Source: Chitinophagales bacterium
GTDB taxonomy: Bacteria; Bacteroidota; Bacteroidia; Chitinophagales; CAIODY01
Assembly (NCBI GenBank): GCA_947452995.1
Contig: CANGEV010000020.1
Span: forward strand, 1 to 41,501
Length of the DNA: 41,501 nt
Direction of reading: 5' to 3'
The translations under genes and the position numbers were made by a program. Positions 7,901-8,798 of the stretch are shown here, piece by piece. The number at the start of each line of letters is the position of its first letter. The first letter of the stretch is position 1. The notes under the pieces were generated by a model. The model did not search any database. It was not told the origin of the DNA and saw only the letters and a list, made by a program, of their open reading frames with translations.

Positions 7901-7955
7901 TGCTAAATACGGCCCGGTAACAACACTTACCTTGAGTCAGATTTTTGGATATTAA
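4929..7955 (+). CDS. Secreted M16 (pitrilysin/insulinase) family zinc metallopeptidase, two-domain
   Basis: The 1008-residue protein has a signal peptide (MKKIFRNALFIGMLAVGTVNAQ) and a Gln/Pro-rich spacer. The first M16 domain has the inverted zinc motif HYLEH (His123, Glu126, His127), with the third ligand expected in VYEEKNR (Glu250/251). The gap between these is about 45 residues longer than the classical 76, filled by a charged helical insertion (about 140-185). The second M16 domain, from about residue 560, lacks a zinc motif, as is usual for the inactive partner that closes the chamber. Such proteins degrade peptides in the periplasm; the substrate is unknown. It follows recJ by 14 bases and ends at a long hairpin. 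Confidence 0.93.
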   Translation: MKKIFRNALFIGMLAVGTVNAQTQPQQVNPRKLPQTTTQPAPNVGPNRKQAEMQEQRNIAMGVSPALRPMTYANDDLNMKMYHLKNGLSVWITVNKAEPRIQTMIAVKAGSKNDPATHTGLAHYLEHMLFKGTDKYGTKDYAKEKEQLDIIEQLYEQYGAEKDEAKRAHIYHLIDSVSGVAANFAIANEYDKMVSNLGAKGTNAFTSTDMTVYVNDIPSNQLDKWLTLESERFRNPVLRLFHTELEAVYEEKNRALDNDPRKMYEAVLASLFQHHAYGTQTTIGTIEHLKSPSITEIKKYFNANYVPNNMCIILSGDLDPDATVSKINELWGNFMPKTVAPYTYEAETPRTAPEEISVYGPDKEQVIIGYRWPGCKSNEYFTQQMVDAVISNGTAGLIQLNLVMSQKVLRAEAGLDENTDYNVYELMANPREGQKLEECRDLLLQQIEKLKNGEFDESMLAAIIANMKVDDMKRLESNQGRAYAMENIFVHSINPANYVARYEIMGRLTKQDIINFAKTHFTNDYTVVYKRIGEDKTTKKVVKPAITPVSINRVDQSDFLKKINGMTVTEVSPEFIQFDRAIQKDKMSNGTPFWYIKNNDNQLFNLYYLFDMGSLSDKALSPAMSYLQLLGTDKQSAEQVQKAFFKLACEFGVNVTDDQTYITLSGAQEHFDEAVTLLENVLNHCAADETALNKMVEGIIKDRADAMKNKNAIRSRLTAYAVYGENSPATFILKNEEMKALKASDLVAKIHGLENYQHKICYVGPADMNTAKASIQKLHTMPATPQAVPAAFKPVRLPTTQQVLFVDYPMVQAEVVWVNKNMDWSEKSIPTVRLFNEYFGGSMSGVVFQTIRESKALAYSCNANYATPSKKEDPFYMNAYVGTQADKLNEAIPAMNELFTNMPYSEKAFTDAKEAMKNKIESERIRRNNILFTYLSAQKLGLDKDIRQEVYRSLNVLDFNAIRAFEEEHIKNAPYTYCVLASSKKVKMEDLAKYGPVTTLTLSQIFGY

Positions 7956-7968
7956 TCCTATTACCGAA

Positions 7969-8023
7969 AGACATCATAAAGCGACTTAGTACATAATAAG
8001 TATTAAGTTAATTTATGATGTCT
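7969..8023 (+). terminator. Long nested hairpin after the M16 peptidase gene
   Basis: AGACATCATAAA (7969-7980) pairs perfectly with TTTATGATGTCT (8012-8023). Inside, ACTTAGTAC (7984-7992) pairs with GTATTAAGT (8000-8008) with one G-U wobble. A T/A-rich tract follows but not a clean U-run. It lies 14 bases beyond the peptidase stop and marks the edge of the AT-rich islet. It may be a terminator or the end of an inserted segment. Confidence 0.55.
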
Positions 8024-8053
8024 TATTTATAACCCTAAATGAGATAATTATAG

Positions 8054-8093
8054 ATAAAATAGTTCCGCATTATCAAGTGTTATTCTATTTTAT
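8054..8093 (+). promoter_or_regulatory. Inverted repeat ending at the DUF6934 start codon
   Basis: ATAAAATAG (8054-8062) and CTATTTTAT (8085-8093) form a perfect 9-bp inverted repeat, and the right arm stops exactly one base before the ATG at 8094. In RNA it would fold over the ribosome landing zone with a 22-base loop. In DNA it could be an operator. No function is shown; the placement is the argument. Confidence 0.45.
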
Positions 8094-8543
8094 ATGAAAT
8101 TATCTGCATACGATTTACGACATAGTGAATCATTTCAAACATTCGAATTTGTTAGTTTAGGAGCCCAAGGAAATATCAATAAAACAATTCAGTTTCAAAC
8201 CACTTCTCTGCCAAATGTTTATAATCTAGCATTTGGAGATATGAACAACAGCACAGGGACAATTGATGATACAATTGTTTCTAATAATGGTGATAGTTTA
8301 AAAATACTTGCAACAATTGCTAAAAGTGTGTACCTATTCACAAGCCTATACCCGGAGGCCTGGGTTTTTGCAACAGGTACTACCCACTCCAGAAATAGAT
8401 TGTACAGAATGGGAATATCTGCACACCTTCATTATATAATAATTGATTTCGAAATATTCGGTGAACTTAATGATACTTGGGAACCATTCTCTAACAACAG
8501 AGATTATTCAGGTTTTTTAGTTAAAAAGAAAATTCCCCAATAA
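8094..8543 (+). CDS. DUF6934-family protein
   Basis: This 149-residue cytoplasmic protein has no signal peptide or membrane segment. The blocks PNVYNLAFGD, VSNNGDSLKILATIAKSVY, PEAWVFATGTTHSRNRLYRMG and FEIFGELN match my memory of the Bacteroidota family DUF6934, whose function is unknown. The coding DNA is clearly AT-richer than its neighbours: two 60-base lines count at about 28% and 35% GC, against about 53% in a line of the B12 gene. This points to recent acquisition. A 49-codon gene follows 21 bases later and an inverted repeat abuts its start. The pair has a toxin-antitoxin-like layout, but no toxin fold is recognised. Confidence 0.8.
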   Translation: MKLSAYDLRHSESFQTFEFVSLGAQGNINKTIQFQTTSLPNVYNLAFGDMNNSTGTIDDTIVSNNGDSLKILATIAKSVYLFTSLYPEAWVFATGTTHSRNRLYRMGISAHLHYIIIDFEIFGELNDTWEPFSNNRDYSGFLVKKKIPQ

Positions 8544-8564
8544 AAATTCTTTAATTTTATAAGT

Positions 8565-8714
8565 ATGAAGTCAAGTAGAAAATTACTTAAACCGAAGTCA
8601 GCATCCATTCAATTAGATACAAGATTGAATAAGCTAGAGAATCAGATTTTATTTCCTGAAAAGTTACAAAAGGCGAACGAAAAATTAAAAAGAATTGGCC
8701 TTCCATTAAAATAA
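8565..8714 (+). CDS. Small basic protein (49 aa) paired with the DUF6934 gene
   Basis: An ATG at 8565 opens 49 codons ending in TAA at 8712-8714. The protein is lysine-rich, starts MKSSRKLLKPK, then forms a likely amphipathic helix (LDTRLNKLENQ, FPEKLQKANEKLKRIGLP). It has no signal peptide. The segment FPEKLQKANEKL resembles short proteins I associate with DUF6934 genes in other Bacteroidota, but that is memory rather than a search. It lies 21 bases downstream of the DUF6934 stop, in the same AT-rich islet, and is probably cotranscribed. It could be a partner, antitoxin-like or DNA-binding peptide; the function is not known. Confidence 0.6.
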   Translation: MKSSRKLLKPKSASIQLDTRLNKLENQILFPEKLQKANEKLKRIGLPLK

Positions 8715-8798
8715 ATCGAGCACTTCAGATCAAAAGCCTGCCTTTCAGTTAAACGATATGCAGCCCTTTTTGCTATTAAAAAGCTCTCTAAAATTTGC

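What the first reader, a model, noticed from the sequence alone, without database searches (positions are those of the whole stretch)
8094..8714. DUF6934 gene paired with an unlisted 49-codon basic gene in an AT-rich islet
A DUF6934 gene and a 49-aa lysine-rich ORF, 21 bases apart, sit in DNA much AT-richer than the flanks (about 28-35% versus about 53% GC in sampled 60-base lines). Two short cotranscribed genes of unknown function in foreign-looking DNA resemble a toxin-antitoxin or regulator-peptide module. No such function is described for DUF6934 as far as I know.
Basis: partly seen in the sequence, partly recalled or inferred. Interest (0 to 1): 0.6.

Follow-up and report, generated by a model that had tools for sequence, protein, structure and literature searches.

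The report
Likely new two-gene toxin–antitoxin module
A 149-residue protein of unknown function (DUF6934) and a 49-residue basic protein form a gene pair conserved across Bacteroidota, found also on antibiotic-resistance plasmids, that looks like an undescribed toxin–antitoxin system whose toxin has an acetyltransferase-like fold and whose antitoxin lacks a DNA-binding part; growth inhibition has not been tested.

Summary
Window 8094-8543 is a full-length DUF6934 gene (PF22028, E 2.5e-53); 8565-8714 is a real gene: a profile built from other species' partners hits it at 2.9e-14. All 79 best DUF6934 loci of a genome-wide scan carry the homologous small gene directly downstream, often overlapping by 4 nt, under purifying selection. 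The 31% GC islet is an insertion: a same-genus genome has the flanking genes adjacent. (Flanks are about 42% GC, not 53%.) An identical pair sits among resistance genes on plasmids of two genera. Decay is one-sided: four broken DUF6934 genes keep an intact partner, and partners occur alone; the one intact DUF6934 with a decayed partner has lost invariant residues. This points to DUF6934 as toxin and the small protein as antitoxin. AlphaFold gives DUF6934 a GNAT-like fold (pLDDT 92), without the GNAT acetyl-CoA signature, and a tethered model places the partner on it confidently (pTM 0.86). Structural matches to GNATs are moderate (Z up to 6.6). No toxicity has been tested; chemistry and target are unknown. 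Best reading: a new type II-like toxin–antitoxin family.

The parts
8094..8543 (+). DUF6934 protein, 149 aa, proposed toxin with GNAT-like fold
   Evidence: PF22028 E 2.5e-53; AF2 pLDDT 92.3, pTM 0.85; invariant or near-invariant Y6 F19 S21 K30 N44 L45 G48 D49 N65 D67 T74 G95 R102 Y104 over 98 sequences
8565..8714 (+). 49-aa basic partner, proposed antitoxin; conserved core is residues 13-49 (consensus PIVxIDKSLNKYxxxVLFPEKLxKANEMLKxxGLP)
   Evidence: Homologue of the partner found in 79/79 loci, profile E 2.9e-14; alignment A4; residues 14-49 pLDDT 91-96 in the tethered model
7956..8780 (.). inserted AT-rich segment (approximate limits)
   Evidence: Homology to same-genus genome G399 stops at about 7935-7955 and resumes at about 8780; there the M16 peptidase and B12-binding genes are about 110 bp apart
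7968..8024 (+). strong hairpin just upstream of the pair, inside the inserted segment; possibly the terminator of the M16 gene
   Evidence: 28-nt arms 82% complementary; -27.3 kcal/mol, z -8.7; one copy in the genome
8042..8105 (+). inverted repeat whose 3' arm contains the DUF6934 start codon; could sequester the start in the mRNA
   Evidence: 21-nt arms 86% complementary; -18 kcal/mol, z -4.5; inverted repeats are not enriched upstream of the pair in other loci

Best explanation
The two genes are a mobile, type II-like toxin-antitoxin operon. DUF6934 is the toxin, a small enzyme of GNAT-like fold; the 49-aa protein is a minimal antitoxin that binds it through its conserved C-terminal two thirds (a short strand and two helices), without the DNA-binding domain that type II antitoxins usually carry. 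Loss of the antitoxin would free the toxin. Shown here: obligate gene pairing, selection on both genes, insertion at this site, plasmid carriage, one-sided decay. Predicted: the fold and the direct binding. Inferred only: growth inhibition, and that the toxin modifies a molecule (possibly of the translation machinery, by analogy with GNAT toxins).
For: Pairing 79/79 with short gaps or 4-nt overlaps (15 overlaps; 74 of 75 measured gaps at most 50 nt). Window partner matched by an independent profile at 2.9e-14. Purifying selection on the partner. Broken DUF6934 with intact partner: L044 in-frame TAG, G099:C20 = L028, first copy in L065, G734:C27 = L246. Partner alone: G292:C3 between glpK and glpD, two in tandem in G190:C12, G696:C53, second copy in L091. 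The single intact DUF6934 with a decayed partner (L244) has R102K, Y104C and a changed G95. Islet absent at the same site in same-genus G399; patchy 18-19/395 in the phylum, up to 8 copies per genome, tandem pairs. Identical pair accessions on Riemerella and Myroides resistance plasmids; another on a Spirosoma plasmid beside a ParA gene. Partner core fused to a LuxR-type HTH in L112. Neighbours in some loci are known TA genes (YoeB, HigB, Gp49-like). Tethered model: pTM 0.86, partner core pLDDT 91-96. GNAT-like fold with TA toxins AtaT, KacT, GmvT, TacT3 among the matches.
Against: No toxicity or neutralisation data. GNAT matches are only moderate (best Z 6.6, Foldseek TM about 0.37, best E 3e-3), no sequence link to GNATs (hhalign probability 0.1%) and no canonical acetyl-CoA motif. 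The complex model is of a read-through fusion, so tethering may help docking, and no contacts could be read. The broken copies are few, mostly from draft genomes, and some could be sequencing errors. Known TA neighbours are a small minority. An obligate two-subunit enzyme would show the same pairing.
Confidence: 0.72

Rival explanations
1. Obligate two-subunit enzyme or accessory factor: the small protein is a required subunit or chaperone of DUF6934, and the pair does something useful to the host (defence, metabolism), with no toxin.
For: Constant pairing, predicted direct contact; the partner could complete the GNAT-like fold, which lacks the usual first helices.
Against: Patchy presence, multicopy tandem pairs, plasmid carriage among resistance genes, and stand-alone partners fit a selfish or addiction module better; a subunit would not be kept when the enzyme is broken.
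Confidence: 0.15
2. Reversed roles: the 49-aa basic protein is the toxin and DUF6934 neutralises it.
For: Toxin-second order is common in type II systems, and small basic proteins can be toxic (general knowledge).
Against: Partners occur alone and beside broken DUF6934 genes; DUF6934 has the invariant polar, enzyme-like residues; the fold search for DUF6934 returns toxins of GNAT type, not antitoxins.
Confidence: 0.06
3. Modifying enzyme with its peptide substrate (RiPP-like), or a regulator with a peptide.
For: Small basic protein next to a transferase-like fold.
Against: The partner's conserved core is a folded, docking-like segment, not a leader plus variable core; the immediate-neighbour scan shows no exporter, peptidase or further tailoring gene recurring beside the pair; stand-alone partners without the enzyme.
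Confidence: 0.05

Closest known systems
GNAT-RHH type II toxin-antitoxin systems (TacAT, AtaRT, KacAT, GmvAT)
   Same: Two small co-transcribed genes, mobile and plasmid-borne, predicted GNAT-like toxin; AtaT, KacT, GmvT and TacT3 structures appear among the best structural matches.
   Different: Toxin gene comes first; partner has no ribbon-helix-helix domain (no Pfam match); DUF6934 lacks detectable GNAT sequence homology and the usual first helices.
Phage Mu Mom (GNAT-fold DNA-modifying enzyme)
   Same: Top Foldseek match of DUF6934 in the PDB, E 3.1e-3, probability 0.94.
   Different: TM only 0.36; no sequence link; Mom is not paired with a small protein of this family.
Single-copy Bacteroidia protein (about 145 aa, e.g. 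L248-L253) and phrog_16075
   Same: Weak DUF6934 profile matches (E 1e-5 to 1e-3 in about 45 genomes; best 8.9e-6) and hhalign 91.5% to DUF6934; shares N-x-G-[DE]...T and R..LY..R motifs.
   Different: One copy per genome, no partner gene seen downstream in the examples read; function unknown.

Membership tests
Pfam DUF6934 (PF22028) | profile score over the curated cut-off | tested here: met
   180 bits, cut-off 27, full length
Type II toxin-antitoxin system | two adjacent co-directional genes, constantly paired | tested here: met
   79/79 loci
Type II toxin-antitoxin system | mobile, patchy distribution including plasmids | tested here: met
Type II toxin-antitoxin system | toxin never kept without its antitoxin, antitoxin dispensable partner of a broken toxin | tested here: met
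   four broken DUF6934 genes with intact partners; the one exception in the other direction has lost invariant residues; small numbers
Type II toxin-antitoxin system | antitoxin protein binds toxin protein | tested here: inconclusive
   tethered AF2 model pTM 0.86; prediction only
Type II toxin-antitoxin system | toxin inhibits growth, antitoxin relieves it | not testable with these tools
   needs an experiment
GNAT acetyltransferases | GNAT fold (b2-b3-b4-a3-b5-a4-b6-b7 core) | tested here: inconclusive
   predicted order of elements fits and nearly all listed structural matches are GNATs, but Z at most 6.6 and Foldseek E at best 3e-3
GNAT acetyltransferases | detectable sequence homology and Q/R-x-x-G-x-G/A acetyl-CoA motif | tested here: not met
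   no GNAT family in Pfam scan, hhalign probability 0.1%, segment before the long helix is invariantly NNGDS-like
GNAT-RHH (DUF1778) toxin-antitoxin family | antitoxin with ribbon-helix-helix domain | tested here: not met
   no Pfam, NCBIfam, PADLOC or PDB-sequence match for the partner
DUF4197 (PF13852), the name given to the plasmid partner by NCBI | profile score over the cut-off | tested here: not met
   12.5 bits against 24.9, E 0.12, 25 residues; name seen

The most novel reading that the evidence does not exclude
DUF6934 founds a toxin family of GNAT-like fold that does not use the canonical acetyl-CoA site (conserved NNGD-S and G-S-T-x-x-R-T-R-L-Y instead), so its chemistry or target differs from known GNAT toxins, and it is held by an antitoxin reduced to the neutralising segment, which supplies in trans the strand and helices missing from the start of the GNAT fold.
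Probability: 0.25. Interest if true: 0.8.

Novelty: new variant of a known kind. Interest (0 to 1): 0.62.

Why it matters
Toxin-antitoxin systems of Bacteroidota are poorly charted. This pair is in roughly one in twenty Bacteroidota genomes sampled, in up to eight copies, and travels on multi-resistance plasmids of animal-associated Riemerella and Myroides, so it may help to keep those plasmids. It gives two families of unknown function a testable role, and ties the DUF6934 fold to a conserved single-copy Bacteroidia protein and to phage proteins whose roles are unknown.

Tried and rejected
Viral contigs and phage records: no relatives of the window protein, so no phage carriage found; the second viral scan was a repeat. 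PHROGs, PADLOC and NCBIfam: nothing for either protein. Papers: none holds DUF6934, PF22028 or the plasmid protein accessions; open-licence PMC only. GNAT homology by profile comparison: none. PDB by sequence: nothing for either family. Shared operator palindromes upstream of the pair: not enriched (mean best arm 5.7 against 5.3 in shuffles). Neighbour scan for a defence-island signal: PADLOC hits are scattered single matches, mostly generic E1-E2 or methyltransferase-like models; not convincing. The small plasmid L031 was not used as decay evidence because both genes, and the hydrolase next door, carry frameshifts. Search of A1 in genome contigs failed for lack of conserved stretches; A3 worked.

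Full report
1. The observation. Window 8094-8543 (+) encodes a 149-aa DUF6934 protein (PF22028, E 2.5e-53, 180 bits, full length). Window 8565-8714 (+) encodes a 49-aa lysine-rich protein starting 21 nt later, in the same frame. The stretch 8094-8714 has 31.6% GC against 41.7% for the window, within the lowest 0.4% of stretches of that length.

2. The small ORF is a gene and belongs to the pair. A scan of GTDB contigs with an alignment of close DUF6934 proteins found 354 relatives, of which the best 79 loci were read. All 79 have a homologous 48-80 aa gene directly downstream on the same strand; one is cut by the contig end (L039) and one is fused to a C-terminal LuxR-type helix-turn-helix (L112; GerE E 4.2e-13). 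Gaps run from -8 to +49 nt with one of 135; 15 of 75 overlap, mostly the 4-nt ATGA type. A profile of 75 of these partners, window not included, hits the window's 49-aa protein at E 2.9e-14. Comparing pairs of loci, the partner shows far fewer non-synonymous than synonymous changes (pooled pN/pS 0.20 although synonymous sites are near saturation; dN/dS about 0.03-0.15 in most measurable pairs). The 79 loci were chosen by DUF6934 similarity, so I also tallied a less selected sample: of 43 clear DUF6934 genes in 395 genomes of the class, 32 have a profile-recognised partner. Ten of the other 11 have a divergent small ORF downstream, and the eleventh (G696:C7) a decayed one.

3. It is a mobile insertion. 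Only this copy exists in the window's genome, and five other genomes of its family lack it. In same-genus genome G399 the flanking M16 peptidase and B12-binding genes are about 110 bp apart with no DUF6934; homology to the window stops near 7935-7955 and resumes near 8780. The family occurs in 19 of 395 phylum genomes at E 1e-3 or better, up to eight copies in one, sometimes as tandem pairs. In 71 of 79 loci the pair is AT-richer than its surroundings. On plasmids, the pair WP_041321170.1 + WP_141113035.1 occurs with identical accessions in Riemerella anatipestifer and Myroides albus, between ere(D)/erm(F) and beta-lactamase genes, and another pair lies beside a ParA gene on a Spirosoma plasmid.

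4. Which is the toxin. Four DUF6934 copies are broken while the partner is intact: L044 (in-frame TAG), G099:C20, the first copy in L065 and G734:C27. Intact partners occur without any DUF6934: G292:C3 between glpK and glpD and two in tandem in G190:C12, G696:C53, and an extra copy in L091; two more solitary hits (G651, G518) look degenerate. In the opposite direction I found one case, G696:C7, where the partner has decayed; its DUF6934 has lost R102 and Y104 and changed around G95, residues otherwise 99-100% conserved. This is the pattern expected if free DUF6934 is harmful and the partner is harmless. The numbers are small and some breaks may be draft-genome errors.

5. Structure. DUF6934 is predicted with high confidence (pLDDT 92.3, pTM 0.85). 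Its order of elements, three antiparallel strands, a long helix, a strand, a helix, two strands, is that of the GNAT core without the first two helices. In the PDB the best Foldseek match is phage Mu Mom (E 3.1e-3), followed by GNATs; VIA-align gives nearly only GNATs at Z 5.8-6.6, including the toxins AtaT, KacT, GmvT and TacT3. Viral predicted structures give E 4e-6 and TM about 0.6 with uncharacterised phage proteins. These are moderate scores, and there is no sequence link: hhalign against 14 Acetyltransf_1 proteins gives 0.1%. The signature for acetyl-CoA is absent; the matching place holds NNGDS. So GNAT-like fold is likely, GNAT membership is not established.

6. Binding. Because the two genes are in frame I predicted their read-through translation (stops read as glycine) with an alignment of 16 such fusions plus unpaired rows. 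The model has pLDDT 89.6 and pTM 0.86 over 206 residues; partner residues 14-49, exactly the conserved core, have pLDDT 91-96 and form a short strand and two helices. If the partner were placed at random, pTM should fall to roughly 0.6 (149/206 of 0.85), so the docking appears confident; this step is inference, since no contact map was available and the tether may help.

7. Interpretation. The best explanation is a type II-like toxin-antitoxin module (confidence 0.72). Toxicity, neutralisation, chemistry and target are not shown. The antitoxin resembles the toxin-binding part of an antitoxin without DNA-binding domain; L112 shows that such a domain can be joined to it. A two-subunit enzyme is the main rival. 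Against the nearest known group, GNAT-RHH systems (for example PMC9431474, PMC9177977), the partner lacks the ribbon-helix-helix domain and the gene order is reversed.

8. Wider family. In the class survey about 45 genomes gave one weak DUF6934 match each (E 1e-5 to 1e-3). Those read are a conserved, about 145-aa protein with no partner gene, related to DUF6934 by profile comparison (hhalign 91.5%) and weakly to phrog_16075. The mobile pair may thus have arisen from a resident or phage protein.

Noticed in passing
window 7968-8024: Very stable AT-rich hairpin (z -8.7) between the M16 peptidase gene and the pair, single copy in the genome; G399 has a G+C-rich terminator-like hairpin at the corresponding place.
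   Followed up: partly
window 8042-8105: 21-nt inverted repeat that folds the DUF6934 start codon into a stem (z -4.5); not a general feature of other loci.
   Followed up: partly
L112:5454-5870: Partner core fused to a LuxR/GerE-type helix-turn-helix domain in a Bacteroidetes MAG.
   Followed up: partly
L248-L253: Conserved single-copy Bacteroidia family of about 145 aa, distantly related to DUF6934 and to phrog_16075; function unknown, below Pfam cut-off.
   Followed up: partly
L032:3481-3642 and L033:4481-4642: NCBI names the partner 'DUF4197 domain-containing protein'; the window partner matches DUF4197 only at E 0.12, so the name looks wrong.
   Followed up: yes
L111:1658-3112: RelE/HigB-like toxin with HTH antitoxin, then a second HigA-like gene, directly beside a DUF6934 pair.
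   Followed up: no
L154 4729-4902: Stand-alone partner gene between glycerol kinase and glycerol-3-phosphate dehydrogenase genes.
   Followed up: partly
L010, L013, L022, L245: A second partner type (K-G-x-Y-x-S-V-E-x-A pattern, 54-70 aa) follows a divergent DUF6934 branch and is not recognised by the main partner profile.
   Followed up: no
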